Positions 4,615 through 60,306 of a stretch of DNA of 64,000 bases are shown here, piece after piece. This stretch comes from Nocardioides currus (GTDB taxonomy: Bacteria; Actinomycetota; Actinomycetes; Propionibacteriales; Nocardioidaceae), in contig NZ_PYXZ01000001.1 in the NCBI RefSeq assembly GCF_003057875.1, forward strand, positions 930,001 through 994,000. Direction: 5' to 3'. The translations under genes were made by a program, and so were the position numbers. A model generated the notes under the pieces. It saw nothing but the letters and a program-made list of their open reading frames with translations, was not told the DNA's origin and ran no database searches. The number at the start of each line of letters is the position of its first letter. Positions within the stretch are counted from its first letter, which is position 1.

Positions 4615-4621
4615 GTGGATC

Positions 4622-5812: not shown

Positions 5813-5815
5813 GGC

Positions 5816-6766: not shown

Positions 6767-6770
6767 CGCC

Positions 6771-6821
6771 GGGTCGAGTGCGCTCGACGTAGTAGTCACG
6801 CAGTGCCTGCGCACTCGACCC
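6771..6821 (-). repeat. 51-bp dispersed inverted-repeat element, copy A
   Basis: Perfect 13-bp arms GGGTCGAGTGCGC (6771-6783) and GCGCACTCGACCC (6809-6821) enclose a 25-nt loop. The loop carries ACTAC on the minus strand at the same offset as copies B (7784) and C (24588). It starts 5 nt after the glycosidase stop codon, so it may also act as a transcript-end hairpin. Confidence 0.85.
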
Positions 6822-6876
6822 AGGGCCTGTGGATGAGCCCGGCGGGGTACGGCGCGGTGCGGGGACACTCGTCGCC

Positions 6877-7865: not shown

Positions 7866-8488
7866 AGCCGGTCGCCGGCGTCGCCGAGCCCGGGCACGAT
7901 GTAGCCCTTCTCGTTGAGGCGCTCGTCCTGCGCGGCGGTCACCACGGTCACCGGCACGTCGAGGCCCTCGAGCCCGGCCTCGAGGTTGGCGAGTCCTTCG
8001 GGGGCGACGAGCAGGCAGATGGCGGTGATGTCGTCGGCACCGCGGTCGGTCAGGAAGCGGATCGCCGCGGCGAGGGTCCCGCCGGTGGCGAGCATCGGGT
8101 CGAGGACGTAGCACTGGCGACCGGACAGGTCCTCGGGCAGGCGCTCGGCGTACGTCGACGCCTCGAGCGTCTCCTCGTTGCGCACCATCCCCAAGAACCC
8201 GACCTCGGCGGTCGGCAACAGCCGCATCATCCCGTCGAGCATGCCCAGCCCGGCACGCAGGATCGGCACGACCAGCGGCTTGGGCGTGCTCAGCTTGACG
8301 CCGGTCGCCGGGGCCACCGGGGTGACGATGTCGGTGGTCTCGACGCGCACCTCGCGGGTCGCCTCGTAGGCCAGCAGGGTCACCAGCTCGTCGGTGAGCC
8401 TGCGGAAGGTCGGCGAGTCGGTCTCGCTCTGGCGGAGCGTGGTCAGCTTGTGGGAGACCAGCGGGTGGTCGACGACGTGCGTGCGCAT
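7847..8488 (-). CDS. upp: Uracil phosphoribosyltransferase
   Basis: A 213-residue cytoplasmic enzyme of pyrimidine salvage, converting uracil and PRPP to UMP. Diagnostic features are an N-terminal [15 protein letters not shown] block, [10 protein letters not shown] in the middle, the PRPP loop [10 protein letters not shown] near residue 130 and a C-terminal [11 protein letters not shown]. The length is normal. It is monocistronic and convergent with the frameshifted gene, overlapping it by 19 nt. The ATG at 8488 follows a TAGGGT hexamer by 6 nt, suggesting a leaderless mRNA. Confidence 0.97.
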
Positions 8489-8494
8489 GCCCGA

Positions 8495-8500
8495 ACCCTA
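8495..8500 (-). promoter_or_regulatory. Candidate -10 box of upp (leaderless)
   Basis: TAGGGT on the minus strand ends 6 nt before the upp ATG, placing transcription start at or next to the A of the start codon. Confidence 0.5.
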
Positions 8501-8586
8501 GTCGGCGCGGGCGTCACAGGGTTTCCTCGCAGGCAGGGATCTGCGACGCTGGAGCCGACGGAGGTGCTCTCGTGGAGGGATTCACC

Positions 8587-9078
8587 ATGGACGACCAGCT
8601 CGACGGCGTGGACTTCGCGCTGGCCGCCTTCCGCGACGCCGACGGCTGGCAGGTGCAGGACATCGCCTCCCCGGCCTTCGAGTCGGTGGAGTCCCTCAGC
8701 CACGCCCTGCGCCGGCTGCCCGGCGACGGCGGCGCGGTCGCGCTCGTCGCGGTCGACGAGGACTTCTTCCTCATCGTGCGCGTCGAGGGACCCACCACCC
8801 GGGTGCTGCTCAGCGACGTGACTGCCGCGGAGGAGTGGGAGCTCGCCCAGTCGGCGCTCGACTTCCTCAACCTGCCGCCCTTCGACGACCTGGACGACGA
8901 CGACGTCGCGCCGGCCGGTGACCTCGACCTGCTCGCCGACCTCGGGATGCACGCCATCGACATGGGCGTCCTGATCGACGACGACGACCTCTACCCCGAC
9001 GAGATGCTCTCCGACGTCGCCCGCGCCCTGGGCTTCGGCGAGGTCTTCGACGACCTGGTCGGGCTCACGTCTGCATGA
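8587..9078 (+). CDS. tRNA adenosine deaminase-associated protein
   Basis: A 163-residue acidic protein of the actinobacterial family always found beside tadA. It begins MDDQLDGVDFALAAFRDADG and contains an Asp-rich stretch (LPPFDDLDDDDVAPAGDLDLLADLG) and a conserved end (YPDEMLSDVARALGFGEVFD). The ATG at 8587 is preferred over an upstream in-frame GTG because GGAGGG lies 8 nt before it. Its ATGA overlap with tadA indicates translational coupling. The biochemical role is not known; a link to TadA is inferred from conserved adjacency. Confidence 0.88.
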   Translation: MDDQLDGVDFALAAFRDADGWQVQDIASPAFESVESLSHALRRLPGDGGAVALVAVDEDFFLIVRVEGPTTRVLLSDVTAAEEWELAQSALDFLNLPPFDDLDDDDVAPAGDLDLLADLGMHAIDMGVLIDDDDLYPDEMLSDVARALGFGEVFDDLVGLTSA

Positions 9079-9536
9079 GCTCGTCCGACACCTGGCGCGA
9101 ACCCATGCGGCTCGCGCTCGCCGAGGCTCGCGCCGCCCTCGCCACCGGCGACGTGCCCATCGGGGCCGTCGTGCTCTCGCCCTCCGGGTCGGTGATCGGG
9201 ACCGGGCGCAACGTCCGTGAGGCAGCGAACGACCCAACCGGCCACGCCGAGGTGGTGGCCCTCCGCGCAGCCGCCGCCTCGGTCGGCGAGTGGCGGCTGA
9301 CGGACTGCACGCTGGTCGTCACCCTCGAGCCGTGCACCATGTGCGCCGGCGCCGCCGTCCTCTCGCGCGTCGCCCGGGTGGTGTTCGGTGCGTACGACGA
9401 CAAGGCCGGCGCCGTCGGCTCGCTGTGGGACGTCGTGCGCGACCGGCGCCTCAACCACCGTCCCGAGGTGGTGGCCGGGGTGCTGGCCGCCGAGTCGGCC
9501 GAGCTGCTCGACGGGTTCTTCGCGGATCACCGCTGA
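9075..9536 (+). CDS. tadA: tRNA-specific adenosine(34) deaminase
   Basis: A 153-residue zinc enzyme that converts wobble adenosine to inosine in tRNA-Arg(ACG). Zinc and catalytic motifs are present: HAE (GHAEVVALRAA, near residue 57) and PCTMC (near residue 86). The fold elements GDVPIGAVVLSP and VARVVFGAYDDKAGAVGS also match. It overlaps the associated-protein gene by 4 nt. Its 3' end overlaps the convergent DUF779 gene by 10 nt. Confidence 0.96.
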   Translation: MSSSDTWREPMRLALAEARAALATGDVPIGAVVLSPSGSVIGTGRNVREAANDPTGHAEVVALRAAAASVGEWRLTDCTLVVTLEPCTMCAGAAVLSRVARVVFGAYDDKAGAVGSLWDVVRDRRLNHRPEVVAGVLAAESAELLDGFFADHR

Positions 9537-9895
9537 GCGGCGGCGTACTCCTCGTCGGTGAGGATCCGCGACCTGATCAGGAACCGCACGCCCTCGGGCG
9601 CCTCGAGCGAGAAGCCCGCGCCGCGACCCTTCACCACGTCGATGGTCAGGTGCGTGTGCTTCCAGTACTCGAACTGCGACCTCGACATCCACATCGGTAC
9701 GGCGCGCTCGAGCCCGACGTCCAGGTCGCCCAGGTGGATGTCGCTGCCGCCGGTGCGGAACTCGCCGTCGGGGTAGCACATGGGCGCCGACCCGTCGCAG
9801 CAGCCGCCGGACTGGTGGAACATCACCGGGCCGTGCGCCTCGGTGAGGCGGCGGATCAGCTCCGCCGCCTCACCGGTGACCGCTACACGGTCCAC
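9527..9895 (-). CDS. DUF779 domain protein, aldehyde dehydrogenase companion
   Basis: A 122-residue protein of the DUF779 family, typically encoded directly after an aldehyde dehydrogenase. It has a Cys-rich segment (QSGGCCDGSAPMC, around residues 27-40), consistent with metal or thiol chemistry, and a conserved MWMSRSQFEYWKHTHLTIDV block. Its GTG start abuts the dehydrogenase TAG with no gap, so the two are co-translated. The function is uncharacterised; a role supporting aldehyde oxidation is inferred only from this conserved pairing. Confidence 0.9.
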   Translation of the reverse strand: MDRVAVTGEAAELIRRLTEAHGPVMFHQSGGCCDGSAPMCYPDGEFRTGGSDIHLGDLDVGLERAVPMWMSRSQFEYWKHTHLTIDVVKGRGAGFSLEAPEGVRFLIRSRILTDEEYAAAQR

Positions 9896-11419
<1,524 letters not shown>

Positions 11420-11474
11420 GTGGTGCTCCAGGAGTGAGGGAGGAAGTGACGACCGTCACGCTAGGAACGCGGAC

Positions 11475-11490
11475 GTTGCATCCACGTTGC
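11475..11490 (-). promoter_or_regulatory. GTTGC-N6-GTTGC direct repeat upstream of aldehyde dehydrogenase
   Basis: GTTGC at 11475-11479 and 11486-11490 (11-bp period) is centred about 63 nt before the dehydrogenase start. The same arrangement precedes the GAF regulator gene at 12762-12777, so it is a candidate binding site for that regulator. Confidence 0.55.
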
Positions 11491-11495
11491 GTGCG

Positions 11496-12710
11496 TCAGG
11501 ACAGGTCGCGGTCCAGTCGGGCGAGCTGCCCGTCGACCAGGGAGCGCATCGGCGAGCTCGTGCCGAGGGCATCACGCTGGGCCAGCCACATGTCGTAGTC
11601 GTCGGCGCCCCAGCTCGAGCGGGTCCACGTCGACATCAGGTCCGGTTCACGGCTCCCCAGCACGGCGGCCCGCAGCGAGTGGTGGAGCTGCTCACGGAGC
11701 CGCACCACGCCCGGCGCGGTCGACCGGGGCAGGATCGGGCCGCGATACCCACGCAGCGCGCGGCGTACGTCGCCTGCCGCCAGCAGGGCCTCGAGCGCCA
11801 GCCAGTCGCCGGCGATGCCCGCGACGAGGCGGTAGGGACGCGAGGGCAGGAGCTCGTCGCCGAGCAGGTGACGCAGCCGGTTGAGCTCGGCGCGCAGGGT
11901 GGAGGACGCGCCGTCGTCCTCGTAGACCAGGACGGCGAGCTCGTCGCCGGAGAGTCCGTGCGGCGCGGAGGCGAGGAGCAGCAGGATCTCGCTGTGGCGC
12001 GGGGAGAGCCGCAGGTGGTGCCGGGCGCCGCGGCCGTCGTCGATGGCGAGCAGCGCCTCGTGCCGGCCCAGGAGCTCGACCACTGCCTGGAGCCCCGACC
12101 GCGGCGGGGCCGGCTGGGCCGCGCGCGTCAGCAGCTCGCGGGCGAGCTCCGCCTCGGCCATCCGGGCCGCGGCCCGCACCATCGCCATCGTCTGCGGAAC
12201 GGCGATGTCGTCGTTGCCGGTGATGTCGAGGACGCCGAGCAGGGTGCTGGAGGTCGGGTCGTGGATCGGGGTAGCGGCGCAGCTCCACTGCTGCACCGAG
12301 TGCCGGAAGTGCTCCGAGCGCCGGACCTGGGCGGGCTGGCCGAGGCGCAGCGCGAGGCCGGGGGCGTTGGTGCCGGCGAGGCGCTCGTCCCAGTTGGAGC
12401 CCTCGACGAACCCGATCGTCTCGGCTTTCCGCAGCGTCGACGGCGAACCGCACACCCACAGCAGCTGTCCGGCCGAGTCGGAGACCGCCATGATCGCACC
12501 GCAGTCGCGCGCCGCCTGCCCGAGCACGTCGTCCAGCAGCGGGAAGACCTGGGCCAGCGGGTGGGCGGCGCGGTGGTCCCGCAGGTCGGACTCACCGAGC
12601 GTGATCGGCGCCTCGACCCGCGCGGCGTCGACGCCGGCCGCGGCGGACAGGTGCCACGAGTCCGCCACCTCGGCACGCATGCCGTCGCTGCCCATGGGCT
12701 CAGTAGACAC
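11496..12710 (-). CDS. GAF-domain transcriptional regulator of aldehyde dehydrogenase
   Basis: A 404-residue protein. The N-terminal half resembles the GAF sensory module of AcoR-type activators (GSNWDERLAGTNAPGLALR and CAATPIHDPTSSTLLGVLDITG). No sigma-54 AAA domain is present. Instead the C-terminal part (about residues 235-330) looks like a winged-helix DNA-binding domain (LSPRHSEILLLLASAPHGLS, then LRAELNRLRHLLGDELL). The GTG at 12710 is chosen for the GGAGG 8 nt upstream; longer in-frame extensions run into the tRNA gene. It directly precedes the aldehyde dehydrogenase and is inferred to activate it and itself through shared GTTGC repeats. Confidence 0.85.
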   Translation of the reverse strand: MSTEPMGSDGMRAEVADSWHLSAAAGVDAARVEAPITLGESDLRDHRAAHPLAQVFPLLDDVLGQAARDCGAIMAVSDSAGQLLWVCGSPSTLRKAETIGFVEGSNWDERLAGTNAPGLALRLGQPAQVRRSEHFRHSVQQWSCAATPIHDPTSSTLLGVLDITGNDDIAVPQTMAMVRAAARMAEAELARELLTRAAQPAPPRSGLQAVVELLGRHEALLAIDDGRGARHHLRLSPRHSEILLLLASAPHGLSGDELAVLVYEDDGASSTLRAELNRLRHLLGDELLPSRPYRLVAGIAGDWLALEALLAAGDVRRALRGYRGPILPRSTAPGVVRLREQLHHSLRAAVLGSREPDLMSTWTRSSWGADDYDMWLAQRDALGTSSPMRSLVDGQLARLDRDLS

Positions 12711-12761
12711 GCTCAACGCCTCCGCCTTCCAGCGATCGGCGACCAGTGTGGGGCACCCGAG

Positions 12762-12777
12762 GTTGCAAGGAGGTTGC
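12762..12777 (-). promoter_or_regulatory. GTTGC-N6-GTTGC direct repeat upstream of GAF regulator
   Basis: GTTGC at 12762-12766 and 12773-12777 (11-bp period) is centred about 59 nt before the regulator start. It has the same spacing, orientation and distance as the repeat before the aldehyde dehydrogenase, which suggests autoregulation. Confidence 0.55.
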
Positions 12778-12821
12778 ATCCGATTTCTTGGCCCCGCCCC
12801 GTCTCCGGTAGCCTTCCCCGC

Positions 12822-12908
12822 GGTGGCGTGTCCGAGCGGCCGAAGGTGCAACACTCGAAATGTTGTGTGGGGTCAAACCCACCGTGGGTTCAAATCCCAC
12901 CGCCACCG
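12822..12908 (+). tRNA. tRNA-Ser(CGA)
   Basis: An 87-nt cloverleaf with a long variable arm. The acceptor arms GGTGGCG and CGCCACC pair (12822-12828 with 12901-12907), with discriminator G12908. The anticodon stem CAACA/TGTTG encloses the loop CTCGAAA with anticodon CGA at 12856-12858. The T arm is GTGGGTTCAAATCCCAC. CCA is not encoded. It reads UCG serine codons. Confidence 0.97.
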
Positions 12909-12914
12909 CCGACC

Positions 12915-12943
12915 GACAGCCGGATCCTCTGGGTCCGGCTGTC
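12915..12943 (+). terminator. Hairpin terminator after tRNA-Ser
   Basis: Ten-base perfect arms GACAGCCGGA (12915-12924) and TCCGGCTGTC (12934-12943) with a 9-nt loop lie 6 nt after the tRNA 3' end. There is no long T-run, as is usual in high-GC actinobacteria. Confidence 0.8.
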
Positions 12944-13007
12944 GTGCATTTCAGGGTCGTACGGCGCCTGGCCGATGCCGCGAAGCTCCGCGCACCTGCG
13001 TCGAGCT

Positions 13008-13241
13008 TCAGGCCAGGTCGAGGGCGATCAGCGGGTCGCCCTCCTGGACGACGTCGCCGATGGCGACCTTGATCGCGGTGACGGTGCCGGGGTGCTCGGC
13101 GAGGACGGGGATCTCCATCTTCATCGACTCGAGCAGCACGACCGTGTCGCCGGCGGCGATGGTGTCACCGACCTCGCAGTCCACCGTGAGGACGTTGGCA
13201 ACCATCTCGGCGAGGATCTCGGTCGACTTCGTGCGGGCCAT
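13008..13241 (-). CDS. Biotin/lipoyl-binding carrier protein
   Basis: A 77-residue stand-alone carrier domain. The biotinylation motif is ESMKMEIPV, with the acceptor Lys in MKM near residue 38, and the C-terminus is the usual GDVVQEGDPLIAL hairpin. Such small proteins carry biotin (or lipoyl) for acyl-CoA carboxylase-type enzymes, but the partner is not adjacent. The ATG at 13241 follows TAGCGT by 7 nt, suggesting a leaderless mRNA. Longer in-frame readings belong to the neighbouring gene's region. Confidence 0.88.
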   Translation of the reverse strand: MARTKSTEILAEMVANVLTVDCEVGDTIAAGDTVVLLESMKMEIPVLAEHPGTVTAIKVAIGDVVQEGDPLIALDLA

Positions 13242-13248
13242 GGGTGCG

Positions 13249-13254
13249 ACGCTA
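13249..13254 (-). promoter_or_regulatory. Candidate -10 box of the biotin carrier gene (leaderless)
   Basis: TAGCGT on the minus strand lies 7 nt before the ATG at 13241. Confidence 0.45.
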
Positions 13255-13279
13255 GCGGTTACCGCGGCGTACGCCCGGA

Positions 13280-14404
13280 TCAGAGCACGGCGAAGCGCGA
13301 GGGCTCCGGGCGGTGCGCGTCGGCTTCCTCGGCGCGACGCCCACGGCTGCCGCGCGGGGCGGTGAGGGCCAGGTCGGCGCGCACGAGGACGAAGCCGATC
13401 AGCAGGCCCGGCACCAGCGAGTAGACGATGCGCAGACCCGCCTCCAGGAAGGAGGTGTCGGGCTCGAGCAGCCCCTGGGCGAAGGGGACGGTGGCCGCGA
13501 CTCCGAAGGCGCACACCCACCAGCCCTGACGCCGGCGGGCGCGCTGGAAGCAGCCCCACAGCAGCGCCGGGATGCCGAGGAGCACCACGAGCGGGCGCGG
13601 GAAGGCGCCGATCCGGTCGTGGGTCCACCGGGCGAAGTCGATCACCGGGCCGACGACCGGGCCCGCGCCGTACCTCCGCAGGAGCTCGCCGTAGACCAGC
13701 GTCAGCAGCAGCGCGGCGGCGCCGACGAGCACGACGACGAGGCCACGCCGACCGAGGCCGTGGATGCCCGCGCCGAGTCGGTAGACCACCGCGAAGACCA
13801 GCGCGAGGGCGAGCAGGATCGCGGCGTAGTCGAACCGCGGCTCGGTCACGGTCGGCTCGAAGCCGACCGCCGCGAGCGCGGTCATGCTGGCCACCACCGT
13901 CGCGACCAGCACCTCGCCGGCCGCGCGCACGAAGCTGACCGCCGGCACCGTCGCCATCACGGCATAGACCGAGCCGACGACGACGGTCATCACCGCCGCG
14001 CCGGTCGGCAGCGTCTGGCCGCCGACGACGACCGCGGCCACCCCGATGCCCAGCGCGAGCAGCGTGGCCACCCCGGGGCGGCCGCCGGTGCGGTGCGCCA
14101 GCGCGCCCGAGAGCGTGGTCGAGACGGCGATCGCGCCGAGGCCGTCGACCCAGGCCGGGCCGATGCCCGCGACCGCGCACCCGAGCGCGGCGAGCCCGGC
14201 GAGCAGGACGGCCACGGCGACGAGCCCGACCAACCGGGCCGGGACACCGCCACCGGCCGGGCGCTCACGCGGCGGTGCGGGAGCCCGTGACTCCTTCGGC
14301 TTCCGCGCCGAACGACGCTCCTTGGGCGGCTTCTCCGCGATCCGCCGACCCTTGACGGGTCCCTTGGAGGAACCCCGAGCGGGGCCGTCGGACGGCGTGG
14401 ACAC
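13280..14404 (-). CDS. Polytopic membrane protein of unknown function
   Basis: A 374-residue protein. The first ~60 residues are a basic, Pro/Lys/Arg-rich cytoplasmic tail (GRRIAEKPPKERRSARKPKE), followed by about ten hydrophobic segments with short loops and a basic C-terminal tail. No catalytic motif was recognised. The GTG at 14404 is supported by TAACCT 7 nt upstream (leaderless start). It sits between the biotin carrier and a nitrilase-family gene, and nothing in the context reveals its job. Confidence 0.75.
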   Translation of the reverse strand: MSTPSDGPARGSSKGPVKGRRIAEKPPKERRSARKPKESRAPAPPRERPAGGGVPARLVGLVAVAVLLAGLAALGCAVAGIGPAWVDGLGAIAVSTTLSGALAHRTGGRPGVATLLALGIGVAAVVVGGQTLPTGAAVMTVVVGSVYAVMATVPAVSFVRAAGEVLVATVVASMTALAAVGFEPTVTEPRFDYAAILLALALVFAVVYRLGAGIHGLGRRGLVVVLVGAAALLLTLVYGELLRRYGAGPVVGPVIDFARWTHDRIGAFPRPLVVLLGIPALLWGCFQRARRRQGWWVCAFGVAATVPFAQGLLEPDTSFLEAGLRIVYSLVPGLLIGFVLVRADLALTAPRGSRGRRAEEADAHRPEPSRFAVL

Positions 14405-51812: not shown

Positions 51813-52496
51813 ATGAGTCTCAGGGGCAACGTCGGTCGTGCGCTGGCGCCGAAGATCACCTCGGCCGCGCCCGGCCTGACCACGTCGTTCGTGCGGGAGG
51901 CGCTCAACCGGGCCATCGACGGGGTCGGGCCGCTCCCCGGCGCGGCGGCCGCGGCCGACAAGCAGCTCGCGGAGCAGCGCGGCGACGTCGACCGCGCGAT
52001 CCACGAGGTCATCGAGAACCACGTCCGCTACGCCGGCGCGCAGGGCTTCCTCACCAACGTCGGTGGTCTCGTCACCGCCGCCGTCACCATCCCCGCCAAC
52101 GTCACCGGCCTGACGCTCGTGCAGTGCCGGATGATCGCGGGCATCGCCCACCTCCGCGGCCACGACCTGGCCGACCCGCGCGTGCGCAACGCGATCCTGA
52201 CCACGCTCCTCGGCGAGGACTCCGTCGCCACGCTCGTGAAGAAGGGCAAGCTCCCCGCGCCGCCGATGGCGCTGGCGACCGCGCCCGCCCACGACGCCGG
52301 GCTCGACAAGATCATCCAGGCCGAGGTCGGCGCCGACCTCGTGGCCCGCGTCGCCGGAAAGCGGCTCGCCGTCACCGTCGGGCGCCGCGTGCCGGTCGTC
52401 GGTGGACTCGTCGGCATGGGCGCCGACGGGTTCGCGACGTGGAAGGTGGGGCGCTACGCCGACCGCGAGATCCTCGCCCGCCCGAAGCCTCGGTAG
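51813..52496 (+). CDS. EcsC family protein
   Basis: A 227-residue protein resembling the EcsC family: VENHVRYAGAQGFLTNVGGLVT-type central segment (here ENHVRYAGAQGFLTNVGGLV), Gly-rich hydrophobic stretches and the C-terminal GRRVPVVGGLVGMGADGFATWKVGRYAD block with amphipathic helices. Such proteins are thought to associate with membranes, but the role is unknown. Convergent with the sulfotransferase-like gene, with 9 nt between stops. Confidence 0.82.
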   Translation: MSLRGNVGRALAPKITSAAPGLTTSFVREALNRAIDGVGPLPGAAAAADKQLAEQRGDVDRAIHEVIENHVRYAGAQGFLTNVGGLVTAAVTIPANVTGLTLVQCRMIAGIAHLRGHDLADPRVRNAILTTLLGEDSVATLVKKGKLPAPPMALATAPAHDAGLDKIIQAEVGADLVARVAGKRLAVTVGRRVPVVGGLVGMGADGFATWKVGRYADREILARPKPR

Positions 52497-52505
52497 TCAC
52501 GGCTC

Positions 52506-53684
52506 CTAGCGGCGGCGCGCCCTGCGGTACGCCGCGAGGGCGACGCGACCCGGTCGGCTGGTCTCCATCGACTGCACGGTCTTCTCGGCCACCGTGCGCC
52601 GGGCGAGGTCGAGCTCGCGGCGGGTCTCGTCGAGCTCGCGCGCCAGGTCGGCCTCGACCGTGCGCAGGCGCGAGCCCTCGACGAGCAGCGCCTTGATGAC
52701 GTCCAGCGCGGGCGGCAGCAGGTCGGCCGCGGGGGCGGAGTCGGGGTCGGTGAACGACTCGGCGGGCTGGCCGACGAGGTCGGCCACGTCGCCCACGACG
52801 TCGTACCCCCGCTTCTCGATCTCCTCGACCCACGTCCGCGACAGCTCCTGCACCCACTCCTGCGTGGCCGGCGGGAGACCGAGCCGGGCCGACGTCGTGC
52901 GGCGCGACAGCGTCTGGTGGGCGAGCAGCTCGCGCACGAGCGGGCGGTAGTCGGGCGGGTCGACGACGGAGGTGACGCGCTTGTTGATCAGCCGCAGCAG
53001 CGCGGTCTCCGGGACGCCCAGCGAGGGGTTGGCGCGGTCGGGGGTGAGGTCGAGCTCGAGCCCGTCGAGGCCGAAGGTGTGGCTGAAGCGGCGCCACAGC
53101 TCGTCGGGCGCGGCACCCGGCCGCGGCACCGTCACGAGGTGCACCTGCTCGGGCGGCAGCGTCGCGCCCCAGCGGGACAGGATGTCGGGGATCTCCTGCG
53201 CGCCCCAGAACCACGACCCGATCCGGGTGTCGCGCGCGGGGTCGCGGATCATCTCGAGGAAGTGGGTATAGGAGACGAGGCTGCGGTGCTTGACGTTCTC
53301 CTGCCACTCCGCCGGGACCTGGCGGACGAGGTCGCGCACCGACACGATCAGGTGCACCTCGACGCCCGTTCCGAACGAGGTCATCGCCCGGTCGATCTGT
53401 GTCGGCGAGGCGGTCGAGAGGATCTCGTGGCTGATGATCGAGGTCCCGGGCCATGCACGCACCTCGGCGGCGAGCCGGTCCCACGCACCGACGGCCTGCG
53501 TCTCCAGCCCGCCCCACGTCAGGCGCATCAGGTCGAGCGCCGCCAGGAAATGGCCGTCGAACCGGTCCGCCGGATAGAGGATCCCCGCCTCGCGCAGGCC
53601 CTCGCGGTTGCGGAACAGCACGTCCTGCAGGTAGGACGTCCCGGTCTTCGGGGTGCCGACGTGGAGCAGGACCTTCTTCCTCAC
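52506..53684 (-). CDS. Sulfotransferase-like protein, last gene of the leucine-degradation polycistron
   Basis: A 392-residue protein. The N-terminal P-loop-like PAPS motif is LLHVGTPKTGTSYLQDVLF (residues ~6-24); a second block (IVSVRDLVRQVPAEWQENVK) matches the 3'-phosphate-binding strand and helix of sulfotransferases. The C-terminal part has a module shared with its two upstream neighbours (WVEEIEKRGYDVVGDVADLV), followed by a coiled coil and an Arg-rich end. The acceptor is unknown. The GTG overlaps the upstream stop by 4 nt. Divergent enough that a different transferase role is possible. Confidence 0.8.
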   Translation of the reverse strand: MRKKVLLHVGTPKTGTSYLQDVLFRNREGLREAGILYPADRFDGHFLAALDLMRLTWGGLETQAVGAWDRLAAEVRAWPGTSIISHEILSTASPTQIDRAMTSFGTGVEVHLIVSVRDLVRQVPAEWQENVKHRSLVSYTHFLEMIRDPARDTRIGSWFWGAQEIPDILSRWGATLPPEQVHLVTVPRPGAAPDELWRRFSHTFGLDGLELDLTPDRANPSLGVPETALLRLINKRVTSVVDPPDYRPLVRELLAHQTLSRRTTSARLGLPPATQEWVQELSRTWVEEIEKRGYDVVGDVADLVGQPAESFTDPDSAPAADLLPPALDVIKALLVEGSRLRTVEADLARELDETRRELDLARRTVAEKTVQSMETSRPGRVALAAYRRARRR

Positions 53685-54811
53685 GGCTGCTCCTTCCAGG
53701 TGTCGTCGACCAGCATGCGTACGGCGAGGTCGAGCACCGCCTCGTCCGACGCCGGACCGGTTGCCTGGTCCGTCGCCTCGGCGGGGACCAGGACCGCCGG
53801 GTCGCCGACGACAGGGTAGCCACCTCGCCGGAGCTGCTGGACCATCCGCTGCGCCGCCGCGCTGACCCACTCGCGGTGCTCCGCGGGCAGGCCGACGGGC
53901 GCGTGCCCGGTGGCCGGCATCCGCGGCAGCAGGGTGTGCGTCATCAGGTCGGCACGCTCGTCCGGCGGCACCAGCAGCCCCACCACGGTGGCGATCCGGC
54001 GGGCCAGCTCGGCGGCGTCGGCCCCGGGCCGGACGACGGGCGGCAGGCGGCGTACGCCGAGCAGGTCGGGCAGCCGGTCGCGGTCGAGGACGACCTGCAC
54101 GTCGCGGTGGCGCGGACGGTGCCGGTCGACCACGGCGGGCAGGTCGATGCGCGGCGGCAGCTCGCCGCGCTGCTGCCAGAACCGCAGCCACTCCAGCCAG
54201 GCCCCGGAGCCGCGCTCGAAGCACCGGCGCGTCCACACGTCGGCGAGCAGCTCGTCGAGCGGGGCGCCGATCACGAGAGCTCGGGAGCCGGGACCGCCCG
54301 GCGGCCGGCCGAGGCCCGCGAGGTGGTCGCGGAGGTGGGCCGCCTCGACCGGGTCGCCGGCGAGGCGGACCGCCCGGTGCCACGGACGCCGCAACCTGCG
54401 CGCGGGCGCCGGCACACCGAGGGCGACGACGTCCTCGGCCAGCACGCTGGTCGCGACCCGGACCAGCTCGTGGGCGGGCAGCTGCGCGGGGTCGACCGGT
54501 TGAGGCCCGTACGGCGACGCCTCGACCCCCACGAGCGGCAGGTCCGGCTTCCCACGACCCGGGGCCGCGGCCGTGAGCACGCGGTCGGCGAGCGCTGGTC
54601 TCGAGGCTCGCTGCGCTCGCACCTCGACCGGCGAGGTCGACGCATTGAGGCGACGCAGCAGCTCGAGCTGCTGGGCGCCGGGCAGCACCCGAGCGCTCGG
54701 CGTCGACCCACCGGTCCAGTCGGCCCACGGCGTGGCGCCGCCGTCGCGCAGGTGCGCGACCCAGCCCCACGCACGGGCCGCACCCACGCTGTCCACGGCC
54801 AGCGTGCTCAA
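53681..54811 (-). CDS. Unknown protein sharing the C-terminal module of the flanking sulfotransferase-like proteins
   Basis: A 376-residue protein without the PAPS P-loop. It starts STLAVDSVGAARAWGWVAHL, has an Arg/Pro-rich middle, and ends with VGLPAEHREWVSAAAQRMVQ followed by QLRRGGYPVVGDPAVLVP, which lines up with the ends of both neighbours (W, then GY/V-V-GD-x3-L). The TTG at 54811 is chosen because it overlaps the upstream stop (TTGA) and gives a protein-like N-terminus; GTG at 54796 is the alternative. A palindromic repeat lies inside the gene (54597-54629). Function unknown. Confidence 0.7.
   Translation of the reverse strand: MSTLAVDSVGAARAWGWVAHLRDGGATPWADWTGGSTPSARVLPGAQQLELLRRLNASTSPVEVRAQRASRPALADRVLTAAAPGRGKPDLPLVGVEASPYGPQPVDPAQLPAHELVRVATSVLAEDVVALGVPAPARRLRRPWHRAVRLAGDPVEAAHLRDHLAGLGRPPGGPGSRALVIGAPLDELLADVWTRRCFERGSGAWLEWLRFWQQRGELPPRIDLPAVVDRHRPRHRDVQVVLDRDRLPDLLGVRRLPPVVRPGADAAELARRIATVVGLLVPPDERADLMTHTLLPRMPATGHAPVGLPAEHREWVSAAAQRMVQQLRRGGYPVVGDPAVLVPAEATDQATGPASDEAVLDLAVRMLVDDTWKEQP
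54597..54629. repeat. Palindromic REP-like element inside a coding sequence
   Basis: Outer arms GGTC-TC-GAGG and CCTCGACC enclose a direct repeat GCTCGC-TGC-GCTCGC. It is read in frame as VEVRAQRASRP within the unknown protein at 53681-54811. The form resembles short dispersed palindromes that I recall as frequent in Nocardioidaceae genomes. Confidence 0.55.
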
Positions 54812-55896
54812 CGCTCGCGCAGCCTGCGGGCCTGGAGGCGGACGCGCCGGCGGATGCTGTCGGGGTCGGTGCGGTCGGCGGCTTCGCGCGTCATCGTGGT
54901 GAGAGCGTCGAGGGCCGCGCCGAGCTGGAGCCGGGGGCTGACCGCGTCGGGGTCGCGCCAGCGCTCGTCGGGGCCGGGGCGGCGCGGGCGCAGGTCCTCG
55001 ACGTCGCCGATCACGTCGACCCCGGAGCCCTTGATCCACTCGATCCAGCGCTCGCCCTCGGCCTCGGCGTAGTCGTAGCGGTGCGGCGGCAGCCGGACCG
55101 GGATCGAGTCGCGGTTGGCCAGGACCTGCTGTGCGAGGAGCTGGCGGATCAGTCCGTCGTACGTCGCGTCGCGCCAGATCGGCATGTCGAGGCGGCGGTT
55201 GAGCCGGCGGATCAGCTGGGTCTCGGCGATCCCGAGCCCGCGGTTGTCGCGCTCGGAGTCGAGGGGCGCCCAGGAGGGGTCGATGCCGAAGGCCGTGCAG
55301 AAGCGCAGCCAGAGCTCGTCGCCGTGCGGACCGCGCTCGTGCGGGACGGTGACGACGTGCACCCGCTCTGGCGGCAGCTTCGCGCCCCAGCTCGACAACA
55401 CCTCGGGCAGGTCCATCGCCGCGCGGAACCAGGTCTTGCGCCGCTCGACCATGTTGAGGAAACGGTCGAAGGACCACTTGCGGCCCTGCTTGACGCTCTC
55501 CTGCCACGCGGCCGGGAGCTGGCGGCCGAGGTCGCGGGCGGAGTAGACGACGTGCACCTCGCTGCCCTCGAGGTCGTTCATGGCCCGGGCGATCTTCTCC
55601 GGCTTGGCCGGCGCCAGGATCTCGTGGCTGATGACGACGGTCCCGTCGGCGCGGCGCACGCGCCGGACCATCGTGTCCCAGGCGCCCTCCGCGTGGCCGG
55701 GCCGGCCGCCCCAGTCCTGGTCGATCAGGTCGAGCGCGGCGCGGAAGTGGAAGAGGTCGGCGTCCACGAGCCGGTTCTTGGTCGGGAAGTGCACCCCGTG
55801 CCCGGCCAGCGTCGAGGAGTTGAGCATCAGCCGGTCCTGCAGGTAGGTCGTCCCGGTCTTCGGGGCGCCGATGTGGAGATAGACGCGGCGGCTCAT
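54808..55896 (-). CDS. Sulfotransferase-like protein
   Basis: A 362-residue protein. The PAPS-loop motif is YLHIGAPKTGTTYLQDRLML (residues ~6-25), the 3'-phosphate block is VVYSARDLGRQLPAAWQESVK, and the C-terminal module is WIEWIKGSGVDVIGDVEDLRP. A central APAKPEKIARAMNDLEG region and a GLGIAETQLIRRLNRRLDMP block align with the protein at 52506-53684, so the two are paralogues. No membrane segments. The ATG overlaps the HMG-CoA lyase stop by 4 nt. The acceptor is unknown; a cell-surface glycan or lipid is possible. Confidence 0.82.
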   Translation of the reverse strand: MSRRVYLHIGAPKTGTTYLQDRLMLNSSTLAGHGVHFPTKNRLVDADLFHFRAALDLIDQDWGGRPGHAEGAWDTMVRRVRRADGTVVISHEILAPAKPEKIARAMNDLEGSEVHVVYSARDLGRQLPAAWQESVKQGRKWSFDRFLNMVERRKTWFRAAMDLPEVLSSWGAKLPPERVHVVTVPHERGPHGDELWLRFCTAFGIDPSWAPLDSERDNRGLGIAETQLIRRLNRRLDMPIWRDATYDGLIRQLLAQQVLANRDSIPVRLPPHRYDYAEAEGERWIEWIKGSGVDVIGDVEDLRPRRPGPDERWRDPDAVSPRLQLGAALDALTTMTREAADRTDPDSIRRRVRLQARRLRER

Positions 55897-56795
55897 GCAG
55901 GCGATTGTGCCAGCGCGCGCACCACCGCGCTGGGACTGGGCCGCCCGAGGTGGGAGGCCATCCACACGCTCGTCGACACCACGGCGTCGAGATCGACGCC
56001 CGTCTCGATCCCGAGGCCGTCCAGCATCCACACCAGGTCCTCGGTGGCGAGGTTGCCGGTGGCGCTCTTGGCGTACGGGCAGCCGCCGAGGCCGCCCGCG
56101 CTGGCGTCGTACGTCGTGATGCCCTCCTGGAGGGCGGAGAACGTGTTGGCCAGCGCCTGACCGTAGGTGTCGTGGAAGTGCATCGCGAGATCGTCGACGC
56201 GCATCCCCGCCGCGACGAAGCCGCCGATGAGGTCCTTGACGTGGCCGGCCGTGCCGACGCCGATCGTGTCGCCGAGGCTGAGCTGGCTCGCGCCGAGGTC
56301 GAAGAGCCGCTTGCCGACGCCGACGACCTGGTCGATCGGGACGGCTCCCTCCCACGGGTCGCCGAAGCACATCGAGACGTAGGCGCGGACGTCCAGGCCG
56401 GCGTCGCGGGCGCGCGTGACGGTCGGCTCGAACATCGCGAACTGCTCGTCGAGGGAGCGGTTGAGGTTCTTCTGCGCGAACGTCTCGGTGGCGCTGCCGA
56501 AGATGGCGATGTGCTGGAGGCCGAGCTCGAGCGCGCGGTCGAGGCCCCGCTCGTTGGGCACGAGGACCGGCAGGCCGCGACCCGACTCGCCCAGGGCGGT
56601 CATGACGTCGGCCGCGTCGGCGAGCTGTGGGACCCACCTGGGGTGCACGAAGCTCGTGGCCTCGACGACCGGCAGCCCGGCGGCCACGAGGCGCTGGATG
56701 AACTCGACCTTCACCTCGGTCGAGATCACGCCCTTCTCGTTCTGCAGGCCGTCGCGCGGGCCGACCTCGTAGATCGTGACCTTCGTCGGCATCAT
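55893..56795 (-). CDS. liuE: Hydroxymethylglutaryl-CoA lyase
   Basis: A 300-residue DRE-TIM metallolyase that splits HMG-CoA into acetyl-CoA and acetoacetate, the last step of leucine breakdown. Key residues: IYEVGPRDGLQNEKG (Arg/Asp of the active site), VEATSFVHPRWVPQLADA, metal-binding His pair in DLAMHFHDTYGQALAN and the catalytic Cys loop GLGGCPYAKSATGN. The length is typical. It overlaps the carboxylase alpha gene by 4 nt on one side and the sulfotransferase-like gene on the other. Confidence 0.96.
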   Translation of the reverse strand: MMPTKVTIYEVGPRDGLQNEKGVISTEVKVEFIQRLVAAGLPVVEATSFVHPRWVPQLADAADVMTALGESGRGLPVLVPNERGLDRALELGLQHIAIFGSATETFAQKNLNRSLDEQFAMFEPTVTRARDAGLDVRAYVSMCFGDPWEGAVPIDQVVGVGKRLFDLGASQLSLGDTIGVGTAGHVKDLIGGFVAAGMRVDDLAMHFHDTYGQALANTFSALQEGITTYDASAGGLGGCPYAKSATGNLATEDLVWMLDGLGIETGVDLDAVVSTSVWMASHLGRPSPSAVVRALAQSPA

Positions 56796-58708
56796 TCGGC
56801 GGCCTCCACCACGATCAGGGTGGCGCCGAGGGCGACCTGCTGGCCGGCGGCCGCGTTGACCTCGGTGACGGTCCCCGCGAAGGGCGCCTTGAGCGCGAGC
56901 TCCATCTTCATCGCCTCCATCACCCCCAGCGTCTCACCCTCGACGACGGCCTGGCCGACGGCGACGTTGACGGCGAGCACGGTGCCCGGCATGGGGGCGA
57001 CCAGGGTGCCGTCGCCGGCCTCGGGACCGTGGTCGGCGAACGGGTCGGGCCGCTCCCAGACCCACCGCTGCCCGCGGTGCACGACGTCGACGAAGCCACG
57101 CTGCACGTTGAGCACGGCGTGCTCGGCGACCCCGTCCACCATCAGGTGGACCGTGTGGTCGGCCGCGGAGACGAGGCGTACGTCGCGGGTCCGGCCGTCG
57201 CTCTCGACGCGCCCGCGCGCCCGGTCGACCACCACGAGGTCGTCGCCGAGGACCACGGTCGCGGGCGCGGGGTCCGCGCCCATCCGCCAGCCGTCGGCCT
57301 GCCACGGACCCGGGCCGGCCCGGTTGGACATGGTCTCGAGGAGCACCTCGGTCCACGCACCGAAGACTCGCGCGAGCCCGGCGTCCGGCACCGGGACCTC
57401 GTGGCGGTCGAGCCACGCCGTGTCGATGGTCGCGTCGCGGAACTCCTCGGAGTCGGCGAGCGCCCGCAGGAAGCCGGTGTTGGTGGTGATGCCGAGGATG
57501 GCGGTCTCGTCTAGCGCCGCCACGAGCGCCGTCCGGGCGGCCTCGCGGTCGGGTCCGGTCGCGACCACCTTGCCGAGCATCGGGTCGTAGGAGGTGCTGA
57601 CCTCCTGCTCGGCCTCGAGCGCGTGGTCGACGCGGACCGTGGTCGGCCACCGGACGATCGAGGTGCGGCCCGCCTGCGGCAGGAAGCCGTGGAAGGAGTC
57701 CTCCGCGTAGACGCGCGCCTCGATGGCGTGGCCCTCGAGCGCGACGTCGTCCTGCGCGAAGCCGAGGGGCTCTCCGGTGGCGACGAGCAGTTGGAGCTCG
57801 ACGAGGTCGACGCGCTCCCCGCGGATCCGCGTGACCTCCTCGGTGACCGGGTGCTCGACCTGGAGCCGAGTGTTCATCTCGAGGAAGTAGAACTCGCCGG
57901 TCGCGTTGTCAAGGAGGAACTCGACGGTGCCGGCACCGGTGTAGCCGACCTGCCGGGCCAGGTCGACGCCGGCCGTCGTGATGGCCGCCTGCTGATCGCT
58001 CGTCAGCGTCGGTGCCGGCGCCTCCTCGAGCACCTTCTGGTGCCGACGCTGGGTGGAGCAGTCGCGCTCGAAGAAGTGCAGCACGGTGCCGTGGGAGTCG
58101 CCCAGGACCTGCACCTCGATGTGGCGGCCCGACTCGACGTACTTCTCGATGAGCAGCGTGTCGTCGCCGAAGGCCTTCGCCGCCTCGCGGGCCGCGGCGG
58201 CCATGGCCTCGGGCAGCTCGGCGGCCGTCCGCACGACACGCATGCCCTTGCCGCCACCACCGGCGGCCGCCTTGACCAGCACCGGGTAGGCCAGCGTGGC
58301 GGGGTCGTCGTCGAGGGCGTACGCCGGCACGACGGGCACCCCGGCGGTGACGGCGATCTCGCGGGCGGCGTCCTTGCGGCCCATCGCGTCCATCACGTCG
58401 GCGCTCGGGCCGACGAGGGTGATGCCGGACTCGGCGAGGGCGCGCGCGAACGGGGCGCGCTCGGAGAGGAACCCGTAGCCGGGGTGGACGTGGCTCGCGC
58501 CGCTCTCGCGGGCGGCGGCGACCACCTCGTCGACGTCGAGGTAGGACCCGACGCGGACGGCACGGTCGGCCTCCCGCACGTGCAGGGCGCCGGCGTCGAG
58601 GTCGGTGTGGATCGCGACGGTCTGCCAGCCGAGCCGGCGGGCGGTGCGGATGACGCGGCGGGCGATCTCGCCACGGTTGGCGATCATGACTGTGTTCATC
58701 TGGTCCAT
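56792..58708 (-). CDS. liuD: Biotin-dependent acyl-CoA carboxylase alpha subunit (methylcrotonyl-CoA carboxylase type)
   Basis: A 638-residue biotin carboxylase plus carrier. BC domain: MIANRGEIARRVIRTARRLG, ATP-grasp GGGGKGMRVV, HIEVQVLGDSHG, ERDCSTQRRHQKV and EMNTRLQVEHPVTE. A linker follows and then a C-terminal BCCP domain with the biotin site EAMKMELAL. It carboxylates biotin for the beta subunit encoded directly upstream. The ATG at 58708 is coupled to the beta stop (TGATG); an in-frame ATG at 58699 gives the more usual N-terminus. Confidence 0.94.
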   Translation of the reverse strand: MDQMNTVMIANRGEIARRVIRTARRLGWQTVAIHTDLDAGALHVREADRAVRVGSYLDVDEVVAAARESGASHVHPGYGFLSERAPFARALAESGITLVGPSADVMDAMGRKDAAREIAVTAGVPVVPAYALDDDPATLAYPVLVKAAAGGGGKGMRVVRTAAELPEAMAAAAREAAKAFGDDTLLIEKYVESGRHIEVQVLGDSHGTVLHFFERDCSTQRRHQKVLEEAPAPTLTSDQQAAITTAGVDLARQVGYTGAGTVEFLLDNATGEFYFLEMNTRLQVEHPVTEEVTRIRGERVDLVELQLLVATGEPLGFAQDDVALEGHAIEARVYAEDSFHGFLPQAGRTSIVRWPTTVRVDHALEAEQEVSTSYDPMLGKVVATGPDREAARTALVAALDETAILGITTNTGFLRALADSEEFRDATIDTAWLDRHEVPVPDAGLARVFGAWTEVLLETMSNRAGPGPWQADGWRMGADPAPATVVLGDDLVVVDRARGRVESDGRTRDVRLVSAADHTVHLMVDGVAEHAVLNVQRGFVDVVHRGQRWVWERPDPFADHGPEAGDGTLVAPMPGTVLAVNVAVGQAVVEGETLGVMEAMKMELALKAPFAGTVTEVNAAAGQQVALGATLIVVEAAE

Positions 58709-60306
58709 CACATCCGGAAGACGCCGTAGGAGGGCTCGGGCACCGGGACCGCGGAGGTCACCGAGAGCGCCATGCCGAGGATGCGGCGGGTGTCGGCGGG
58801 GTCGATCACGCCGTCGTCCCACAGCCGGGCCGAGGAGTAGTAGGGCGAGCCCTGCGTCTCGTACTGCTCGCGGATCGGCGCCTTGAACGCCTCCACCTGC
58901 TCGTCGGTCTCCAGGTCGGTGCGCACGGTGGCGAGCACGCCCGCCGCCTGCTCGCCGCCCATCACCGAGATCCGGGCGTTGGGCCACATCCACAGGAAGC
59001 GCGGGTCGTAGGCACGACCGTTCATGCCGTAGTTGCCGGCCCCGAACGAGCCCCCGATGACGACGGTGAACTTCGGCACGACGCTGCACGCGACGGCCGT
59101 GACGAGCTTGGCGCCGTCGCGCGCGATGCCCTTGTTCTCGTACTCCCGCCCGACCATGAAGCCGGTGATGTTCTGCAGGAAGACCAGCGGGATCTTGCGC
59201 TGGTTGCACAGCTCGACGAAGTGCGCGCCCTTGAGCGAGGACTCGCTGAACAGGATGCCGTTGTTGGCGACGATGCCGACCTCGTGGCCGTGGATGCGCG
59301 CGAAGCCGCACACCAGCGTCTCGCCGTACAGCTTCTTGAACTCGTGGAACCTGCTGCCGTCGACGACGCGGCGGATCACCTCGCGCACGTCGTAGGGCGT
59401 GCGGGTGTCGGTGGGGACGACGTCGTAGAGCGACTCGGGCGGCTCGTGCGGCTCCTCGACGGTCTCCGGGTCGATGCGCGACGGCTCGGGCGGCGGCAGG
59501 GTGTCGATGACGCTGCGCAGGATCGCGAGGGCGTGGGCGTCGTCCTCGGCGAGGTGGTCGACGACGCCGGACGTGCGCGCGTGCACGTCACCGCCGCCGA
59601 GGTCCTCGGCGCTGACGACCTCGCCGGTCGCAGCCTTCACCAGCGGCGGGCCGCCGAGGAAGATCGTGCCCTGGTTGCGCACGATCACGGTCTCGTCGGA
59701 CATGGCCGGGACGTAGGCGCCGCCGGCGGTGCACGAGCCCATCACCGCGGCGAGCTGCGGCACGCCCCGGGCGGAGAGGTTGGCCTGGTTGAAGAAGATC
59801 CGGCCGAAGTGCTCGCGGTCGGGGAACACCTCGTCCTGCATCGGGAGGAACGCCCCGCCGGAGTCCACCAGCGCGATGCAGGGCAGGCGGTTCTCGGCCG
59901 CGACGGTCTGCGCCCGGAGGTGCTTCTTGACCGTCATCGGGTAGTAGGTGCCGCCCTTGACGGTCGCGTCGTTGGCGATCACCATCACCGGCCGCCCGTG
60001 CACGAGGCCGATGCCGGTGACGATGCTCGCGGACGGGACGGCGTAGTCGTCGCCGTCCTTGCCAGCTGCGTCCTTGCCGGCTGCGTCCTTTCCATACATG
60101 CCGTACGCCGCCAGCGGAGCCAGCTCCAGGAACGGACTGCCCGGGTCGAGCAGCCGGTCGACCCGGTCGCGGACCAGCAGCTTGCCGCGGCCCGTGTGCT
60201 TGGCCCGCGCGCTCTCCGACCCGCCCTGCCGGACGATCGCCAGTCGCTCCCGCAGGTCGTCGACGAGCTCGCGCATGGTCGGGGTGGCCGGTGTCTCGTC
60301 ACTCAC
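58708..60306 (-). CDS. liuB: Acyl-CoA carboxylase beta subunit (methylcrotonyl-CoA carboxylase carboxyltransferase)
   Basis: A 532-residue carboxyltransferase. The block [20 protein letters not shown] followed by [28 protein letters not shown] is characteristic of methylcrotonyl-CoA carboxylase beta. A C-terminal crotonase-like half contains [20 protein letters not shown] and [26 protein letters not shown]-type pentapeptide repeat interrupts residues ~76-87 (bases near 60050-60095). The GTG at 60306 is placed 7 nt after a TAACCT -10 box, with no Shine-Dalgarno, so the operon mRNA is probably leaderless. First gene of a six-gene polycistron. Confidence 0.94.

What the first reader, a model, noticed from the sequence alone, without database searches (positions are those of the whole stretch)
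52506..60306. A sulfotransferase-like trio translationally fused to the leucine-degradation operon
Six genes overlap by 1-4 nt each: MCC beta, MCC alpha, HMG-CoA lyase, then two PAPS-loop proteins flanking a protein with no P-loop. All three last proteins end with a common module (W-x-n-GY/V-x-V-x-GD-x3-L). Such tight coupling of leucine catabolism to possible sulfation has no explanation from known pathways and may be an undescribed system, for example one making a sulfated isoprenoid or glycan, or a non-sulfating transferase family.
Basis: partly seen in the sequence, partly recalled or inferred. Interest (0 to 1): 0.68.

Follow-up and report, generated by a model that had tools for sequence, protein, structure and literature searches.

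The report
Likely galactan sulfotransferases beside leucine genes
Three unannotated genes at the end of a leucine-breakdown operon in a soil bacterium look like an enzyme set that adds sulfate to a cell-surface sugar polymer; their place in the leucine operon seems to be a shared address rather than a shared job.

Summary
In detail: six minus-strand genes (60306-52506) overlap by 1 to 4 nt, and the last three (T1, T2, T3) reach no Pfam or NCBIfam cut-off. The window is Nocardioides. T3 has a confidently modelled sulfotransferase fold, closest to heparan-sulfate sulfotransferases (Z 14.9). T1 is its homologue with the same loop; T2 is a relative without it. The link to leucine breakdown looks positional: T3 follows HMG-CoA lyase in 76 of 98 Nocardioides genomes, but five liu-less loci (at least three separate cases) keep T1 and T3, one intact leucine locus has no trio, and six keep only T1. 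The family tracks galactofuranose better. The four genomes without a T1/T3 orthologue all lack UDP-galactopyranose mutase (one exception the other way, a draft); three of the four also lack a close leucine-locus lyase. Across the class, 25 of 25 genomes with a strong homologue have the mutase; relatives sit beside mutase, GlfT2 and Wzm/Wzt genes, and in one genome T2-T3 themselves do. Best reading: T1 and T3 sulfate a galactofuranose-containing surface galactan in the cytosol before export, with T2 as non-catalytic partner. Sulfation, substrate and complex are inferred, not shown.

The parts
54808..55896 (-). T1, sulfotransferase-like protein, 362 aa, P-loop HIGAPKTGTT
   Evidence: 42 % identical to T3; own clade in relatives, 100/99; positions K13, G15, T16, E87, R117 of T3 conserved in 60 of 60 rows of A4. 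No Pfam/NCBIfam hit over cut-off
53681..54811 (-). T2, P-loop-less sulfotransferase relative (pseudoenzyme candidate), 376 aa, TTG start
   Evidence: hhalign probability 99, E 7e-18 to the T1/T3 profile; pLDDT 92.6; best Z only 4.9, but the first 23 rows are sulfotransferases; no loop in 43 of 43 rows
52506..53684 (-). T3, sulfotransferase-like protein, 392 aa, GTG start, long C-terminal helix 319-361
   Evidence: pLDDT 93.7; Z 14.9 to NDST1, rmsd 4.0, 237 aligned
55893..56795 (-). HMG-CoA lyase (neighbour, positional only)
   Evidence: PF00682, NF004283 over cut-off
56792..58708 (-). MCC alpha, biotin carboxylase plus biotinyl domain (neighbour, positional only)
58708..60306 (-). MCC beta, carboxyltransferase (neighbour, positional only)
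51813..52496 (+). EcsC-family gene, convergent; marks the far edge of the slot
   Evidence: PF12787; present in 46 of 46 named loci that hold the trio or part of it and still there where the trio is absent (L116)

Best explanation
T1 and T3 are cytosolic PAPS-dependent carbohydrate sulfotransferases of a family that Pfam and NCBIfam do not recognise. They sulfate a galactofuranose-containing cell-surface galactan, which is built in the cytosol by UDP-galactopyranose mutase and GlfT2, before export by the Wzm/Wzt ABC transporter. T2 is a relative that lacks the PAPS loop and whose gene overlaps T3's; it most likely serves as a non-catalytic partner (scaffold, substrate-gripping or specificity subunit). 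The leucine operon is a long-standing chromosomal address with shared transcription, not a metabolic partner. Shown: gene layout, predicted sulfotransferase fold of T3, homology of T1 and T2, co-occurrence and neighbourhood with galactofuranose genes, cases of trio and leucine genes apart. Inferred: PAPS binding, sulfation, substrate, place in the cell, T2 partnership, shared transcription.
For: Fold: T3 model pLDDT 93.7; second-look Z 14.9 to NDST1 (rmsd 4.0, 237 aligned), 13.9 to a bacterial sulfotransferase (3rnl), 12.7-14.2 to 3-O-sulfotransferases, 10.3 or less to SULTs, 9.1 for the best unrelated P-loop kinase. The loop K, G, T and also E87 and R117 are invariant in 60 of 60 homologues. 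T2 homologous to T3 107-336, E 7e-18. PAPS supply: APS kinase in 96 of 98 genomes. Galactofuranose link: the mutase was not found in 5 of 98 genomes, among them all four without a T1/T3 orthologue (4 of 4 against 1 of 94, Fisher p 1.4e-6), at least two separate joint absences on an rpoB tree. Across the class, 25 of 25 genomes with a strong homologue have the mutase against 55 of 271 others; outside the own family 11 of 11, in 7 of which the two genes lie within about 3 kb (coordinates). Neighbours confirmed by Pfam as GLF, GlfT2 domains, ABC2 exporter, and one sulfatase. A T3 orthologue and T2 beside UGM-GlfT2-Wzm-Wzt in genome G020. Apart from leucine genes.
Against: No sulfation, PAPS binding or sulfated galactan has been shown. 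Foldseek alone gave T3 no match at E 0.001 (best 2e-3) and mixed sulfotransferases with kinases. The residue 8 after R117, where known sulfotransferases often have a serine that holds the 3'-phosphate (recalled), is Ala in 59 of 60. Absence of T1/T3 also goes with absence of a close leucine-locus lyase (3 of 4 against 6 of 94, p 0.002); only G097 separates the two on that side. Draft G089 has T3 but no mutase found. More distant homologues (E 1e-10 to 1e-90) do not track the mutase (5 of 42 against 43 of 218). Most mutase-bearing genomes have no strong homologue (55 of 80), as expected of a decorating enzyme but also of a loose link. In Nocardioides the trio was found beside the galactan genes in one genome only. 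APS kinase is present in the four genomes without T1/T3 too. Related genomes are not independent, so the p-values overstate.
Confidence: 0.58

Rival explanations
1. T1/T3 are PAPS-dependent sulfotransferases, but of another surface glycan, glycolipid or small molecule; the galactofuranose link reflects a shared lifestyle or shared wall type rather than the substrate.
For: The trio lies away from glycan genes in almost all Nocardioides; a paralogue cluster also carries LicD-like, methyltransferase and acyl-CoA dehydrogenase genes; genus g2 of the same family has the mutase in 7 of 8 genomes listed but no strong homologue.
Against: Strong homologues go with the mutase in 25 of 25 genomes, and the two gene sets are physically linked in 7 of 11 genomes outside the family.
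Confidence: 0.22
2. The trio works with leucine catabolism, for example sulfating a leucine-derived isoprenoid or 3-methylglutaryl product.
For: Conserved adjacency, 76 of 98 genomes, a possible 4-nt overlap with HMG-CoA lyase at 13 of 36 named loci, and absence of T1/T3 partly going with absence of a close lyase (3 of 4 against 6 of 94). A paper on the 3-methylglutaryl group of the antibiotic caprazamycin mentions both methylcrotonyl-CoA carboxylase and sulfotransferase (search listing only).
Against: HMG-CoA lyase was not found at E 1e-60 in six genomes that keep T3; in five of them the loci were read and carry T1 and T3, four of the five also T2, with no leucine genes upstream, at least three separate cases on the tree. 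In L111 T1 overlaps a different upstream gene by 4 nt. L116 has leucine genes and EcsC with no trio. MCC genes were not searched genome-wide.
Confidence: 0.07
3. The proteins keep a sulfotransferase fold but do another job, such as binding a nucleotide or glycan, or transferring a different group.
For: No sequence match to curated sulfotransferase families over cut-off; only weak PF13469 hits in 9 of 60 relatives; the expected 3'-phosphate serine is replaced by Ala in 59 of 60.
Against: The loop and an acidic/arginine set are invariant, carbohydrate sulfotransferases lead the structural list by about 2 to 5 Z units over SULTs, and a sulfatase (PF00884) lies near a homologue in L158.
Confidence: 0.13

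Closest known systems
Heparan-sulfate N- and 3-O-sulfotransferases (NDST1, 3-OSTs)
   Same: Predicted fold of T3: Z 14.9 (rmsd 4.0, 237 aligned) and 12.7-14.2; a PKTGTT-type loop (in NDST1 recalled); these rank above small-molecule SULTs
   Different: 10-14 % identity, no family hit; bacterial, and cytosolic in the model proposed here; arranged as a trio with a loop-less partner; extra C-terminal helix in T3
Bacterial sulfotransferase of Alicyclobacillus acidocaldarius (PDB 3rnl)
   Same: Z 13.9, rmsd 4.3, 233 aligned, the best bacterial match listed
   Different: 13 % identity; its function and genes were not looked up
Sulfotransferases WpsB/WpsH of Actinoplanes missouriensis wps-1 (PMC13390465; abstract and found passages seen)
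   Same: Actinobacterial, predicted to sulfate a polysaccharide that may contain galactofuranose
   Different: Their InterPro domains are named in the paper (IPR051135, IPR037359), the cluster is Wzx/Wzy-dependent, and a sulfated product was not shown; whether T1/T3 are homologous to them was not tested
Sulfated capsule of Cobetia marina (PMC11766843; search listing only)
   Same: A bacterial sulfated surface polysaccharide studied together with its genome
   Different: A different, marine bacterium; no sequence comparison made
Galactan assembly genes glf (UDP-galactopyranose mutase), glfT2, wzm/wzt
   Same: Neighbours of strong homologues and of T2-T3 in G020
   Different: The trio's family is an add-on, absent as a strong homologue from 55 of 80 mutase-bearing genomes
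Mycobacterial sulfotransferases (Stf0 and others; recalled, not compared)
   Same: Actinobacterial sulfation of surface compounds
   Different: Recalled as glycolipid or menaquinone sulfation; no comparison run

Membership tests
PAPS-dependent sulfotransferase fold (T1, T3) | Sulfotransferase three-dimensional fold | tested here: met
   Predicted model of T3: Z 14.9 to NDST1, rmsd 4.0, 237 residues, above unrelated P-loop proteins (best 9.1); T1 by homology only
PAPS-dependent sulfotransferase fold (T1, T3) | 5'-phosphosulfate loop PKxGTT/S | tested here: met
   K, G, T invariant in 60 of 60 rows
PAPS-dependent sulfotransferase fold (T1, T3) | 3'-phosphate site: Arg and, 8 residues on, Ser (recalled) | tested here: inconclusive
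   R117 invariant, position +8 is Ala in 59 of 60; equivalence to the known site was judged from sequence and memory, not from coordinates
PAPS-dependent sulfotransferase fold (T1, T3) | PAPS binding and sulfate transfer | not testable with these tools
   needs protein
Pfam sulfotransferase families (PF00685, PF13469) | Score over the curated cut-off | tested here: not met
   No sulfotransferase family for the trio up to E 1; PF00685 finds four other genes in this genome but not the trio; 9 of 60 relatives hit PF13469, best E only 0.009
Sulfotransferase (T2) | PAPS loop | tested here: not met
   No such loop in 43 of 43 T2 rows; homology holds for residues 173-373
Leucine-degradation system | Always found together with the leucine genes | tested here: not met
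   Both ways of separation seen, although absences partly coincide
Galactofuranose galactan modification | Strong homologues occur only where UDP-galactopyranose mutase occurs | tested here: met
   25 of 25 in the class sample; in the genus sample one exception, draft G089 (360 contigs, rpoB also not found), has T3 without a mutase
Galactofuranose galactan modification | Sulfate on the galactan | not testable with these tools
   needs chemistry

The most novel reading that the evidence does not exclude
T1-T2-T3 is a heteromeric sulfation machine in which a dead sulfotransferase (T2) positions the galactan for two live ones, writing a defined sulfate pattern on a galactofuranose wall polymer: a bacterial counterpart of heparan-sulfate modification, widespread in Nocardioides and, as far as my searches of the open library show, not described.
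Probability: 0.3. Interest if true: 0.78.

Novelty: new variant of a known kind. Interest (0 to 1): 0.6.

Why it matters
A 2026 study (PMC13390465) proposes a sulfated polysaccharide in the actinomycete Actinoplanes missouriensis and says that its production awaits experimental verification. This family gives a second, genetically simple candidate in soil bacteria, with a named likely polymer (a galactofuranan), an enzyme family without a name in Pfam or NCBIfam and a loop-less partner protein. It also warns that an overlapping, widely conserved operon can join genes with unrelated jobs.

Tried and rejected
Sequence routes that gave nothing: Pfam, NCBIfam and PADLOC scans of the trio (sub-threshold hits only), PDB sequence searches (nothing convincing), tblastn of T3 against plasmids, Foldseek for T2 (no match at E 0.001; second look best Z 4.9). 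The TetR_C_11 hit of T2 (E 7.6e-5) is below the family's cut-off and occurs in one of 43 relatives: treated as chance.

Considered and rejected: T3-like genes beside the mutase in G018, G024, G035, G050 and G063 as relocated T3. The gene tree puts them in other clades, so only G020 counts as T2-T3 beside galactan genes; G020 is listed with 7 % contamination, though the genes share one contig. An anti-phage role: no PADLOC hit.

Dropped or handled rows: positions were copied by hand; T3 rows were the best per genome down to E 1.9e-105, and HMGCL rows of 60 % identity or less that were second copies were left out, while G057's only hit (60 %) and G014's second copy (70 %) were kept. Of the 49 named loci, L086-L088 hold other paralogues and were left out of the counts; its junction counts also omit L052 (broken frames) and L081. 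Gene calls come from a simple codon-usage script and miss genes (at least two loci returned none; its output was cut). In one search only the 25 own-family genomes visible in the listings were removed; more may be among the unlisted ones. The rpoB tree covers 40 of 98 genomes. The first rpoB tree was wrong because strands were mixed; one search replaces it. On re-checking I added: three of the four genomes without T1/T3 also lack a close leucine-locus lyase; for that I lowered the best explanation from 0.60 to 0.58 and raised the leucine rival from 0.05 to 0.07. Not in print: searches (PMC open-licence papers only) listed no description of this trio or of a sulfated Nocardioides galactan; apart from PMC13390465 I saw listings only.
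Full report
On the minus strand of a Nocardioides contig (identified from the named relatives) run MCC beta, MCC alpha, HMG-CoA lyase and three further genes, here T1, T2 and T3, each overlapping the next by 1 or 4 nt. The first three are ordinary leucine-degradation genes. The trio has no Pfam, NCBIfam or PADLOC hit over a cut-off. T1 and T3 are 42 % identical homologues with a PKTGTT/S loop; T2 lacks it, as do all 43 T2 rows.

What the proteins are. T3 modelled on 60 homologues has mean pLDDT 93.7. Foldseek alone is weak: best E 2e-3, sulfotransferases mixed with kinases. The second look at those candidates puts carbohydrate sulfotransferases first: NDST1 Z 14.9 with rmsd 4.0 over 237 residues, 3-O-sulfotransferases 12.7-14.2, a bacterial sulfotransferase (3rnl) 13.9, SULTs 10.3 or less, the best unrelated kinase 9.1. 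K13, G15, T16, E87, R117 and D118 are invariant in 60 of 60 rows; the residue eight after R117 is Ala in 59 of 60 where I would expect Ser from memory. T2 is modelled well too (92.6). The first 23 of its structural matches are sulfotransferases, but at Z 4.9 or less; sequence profiles settle the kinship (residues 173-373 against T3 107-336, probability 99, E 7e-18). T2 therefore looks like a sulfotransferase relative without a PAPS loop.

How the locus varies. In 46 named loci the trio or part of it is followed by a convergent EcsC gene in all 46, and HMG-CoA lyase lies upstream in 40; of the six without it, three end too early to tell (L045, L073, L075) and three lack it in the stretch read (L046, L060, L078). 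Starts that would give a 4-nt overlap exist at 44 of 44 T2-T3 junctions, 27 of 40 T1-T2 junctions and 13 of 36 HMGCL-T1 junctions. In 98 Nocardioides genomes, 88 have a T3 orthologue and 90 an HMG-CoA lyase of at least 60 % identity; T3 lies just downstream of the lyase in 76, on another contig in five, about 16 kb away in one, without any lyase in six; the lyase occurs without T3 in eight, and both are missing in two. Thirteen of the 76 gaps have room for only one gene.

Apart from leucine. Five of the six genomes with T3 but no lyase were read (the sixth, G069, is an incomplete draft): T1 and T3 stand before EcsC in all five, T2 in four, with no leucine genes upstream; in L111 T1 overlaps a different gene by 4 nt. 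On an rpoB tree these are at least three separate cases (G048/G059/G066; G026; G053). Conversely, G097 (L116) has the leucine genes directly followed by EcsC, and six genomes have T1 but not T2 or T3 there (L117-L121, L123). So the two gene sets have come apart in both directions. MCC genes were not searched genome-wide.

The galactofuranose link. A search for UDP-galactopyranose mutase in the same 98 genomes found it in 93. The five without it are G057, G084, G094, G097 and the fragmented G089. The first three have no T homologue at E 0.001; G097 has only a weak one (7e-9 with the T3 sequence, 3e-20 with the family profile). These four are also the only genomes of the 98 without a T1 or T3 orthologue at the places looked at. 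G089 is the exception, with T3 but neither mutase nor rpoB found. Against a clean contrast: three of the four also lack a close leucine-locus lyase (G084 and G094 none, G057 only a 60 % one away from MCC and EcsC), so absence of T1/T3 goes with absence of a close lyase as well (3 of 4 against 6 of 94, p 0.002), though less than with absence of the mutase (4 of 4 against 1 of 94, p 1.4e-6). On the tree G057 and G094 are sisters, G097 lies in the other well-supported half, and G084 is unresolved: at least two joint absences. G169, a further genome of the genus in the class sample, has neither T2 nor mutase and only a weak homologue (2e-11). In 296 genomes of the class, all 25 with a strong homologue (E below 1e-90; 14 of them of the own family) have the mutase, against 55 of 271 others; outside the own family 11 of 11, in six genera, against 48 of 260. 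Weaker homologues show no such link (5 of 42 against 43 of 218).

Neighbourhoods agree. In seven of those 11 genomes a homologue lies within about 3 kb of the mutase (coordinates). Pfam confirms mutase (L158, L160, L161, L086), GlfT2 domains (L158, L160) and an ABC-2 exporter (L158, L086) near homologues, and a sulfatase in L158; the Wzt-like ATPase in L086 is nearest to teichoic-acid and galactan exporters, below their cut-offs. The window's genome has its own mutase with GlfT2-, Wzm- and Wzt-like genes (L189, tblastn), about 48 kb from a cluster of T paralogues (L089). In G020, T2 and a T3 that falls inside the T3 clade sit right after, and convergent to, mutase-GlfT2-Wzm-Wzt (L191). Within the order, near-full-length T2 occurs in 42 of 196 genomes, all of the own family, in three genera.

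Mechanism. GlfT2-type galactan is made in the cytosol and exported by Wzm/Wzt (recalled); PAPS is cytosolic, and APS kinase is present in 96 of 98 genomes, including the four without T1/T3, so it shows supply and no more. T1 and T3 would sulfate the chain before export. T2, whose gene overlaps T3's at all 44 junctions counted, would be a non-catalytic partner. Confidence: fold 0.95, PAPS use 0.85, glycan substrate 0.75, galactofuranan specifically 0.58, T2 as partner 0.5.

Prior knowledge. Tezuka and Ohnishi 2026 (PMC13390465; abstract and found passages read) predict a sulfated, perhaps galactofuranose-containing polysaccharide in Actinoplanes from two sulfotransferases and say that its production awaits verification. 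Nine searches of the open library listed no account of this trio. I call it a new variant of a known kind.

Noticed in passing
window 53681-54811 (T2), residues 1-135: The N-terminal part of T2 weakly resembles the C-terminal half of T3 (hhalign E 2.7e-4, probability 42), so T2 may be the remnant of two fused sulfotransferase copies.
   Followed up: partly
L089 (G000:C12:612500-632000), 5819-13764: Three T paralogues with a glycosyltransferase-like gene (by eye), a weakly LicD-like/methyltransferase-like gene, an acyl-CoA dehydrogenase and a methyltransferase-like gene.
   Followed up: partly
G000, G054, G061, G079, G083, G128, G131, G134, G137, G142, G145: In 11 of 12 same-genus genomes of the class sample with a mutase and strong T homologues, T paralogues lie 42 to 53 kb from the mutase on the same contig (coordinates); in the twelfth, G041, they are on different contigs.
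   Followed up: no
L158 (G491), 3008-5832: A sulfatase (PF00884) and a weakly arabinanase-like gene stand directly before a T homologue and near a galactan gene set: possible turnover enzymes of a sulfated glycan.
   Followed up: no
L112 (G026), 3161-4069: A gene that looks like a GT2 glycosyltransferase lies on the opposite strand between T1 and T3, where T2 is missing (by eye).
   Followed up: no
L111, L113, L115, gene upstream of T1: The same membrane-protein-like gene (desaturase-like by eye) stands where the leucine genes would be, overlapping T1 by 4 nt in L111.
   Followed up: no
L052 (Nocardioides sp. B-3): MCC and T3 genes are split into several pieces, probably sequencing errors in that record.
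   Followed up: no
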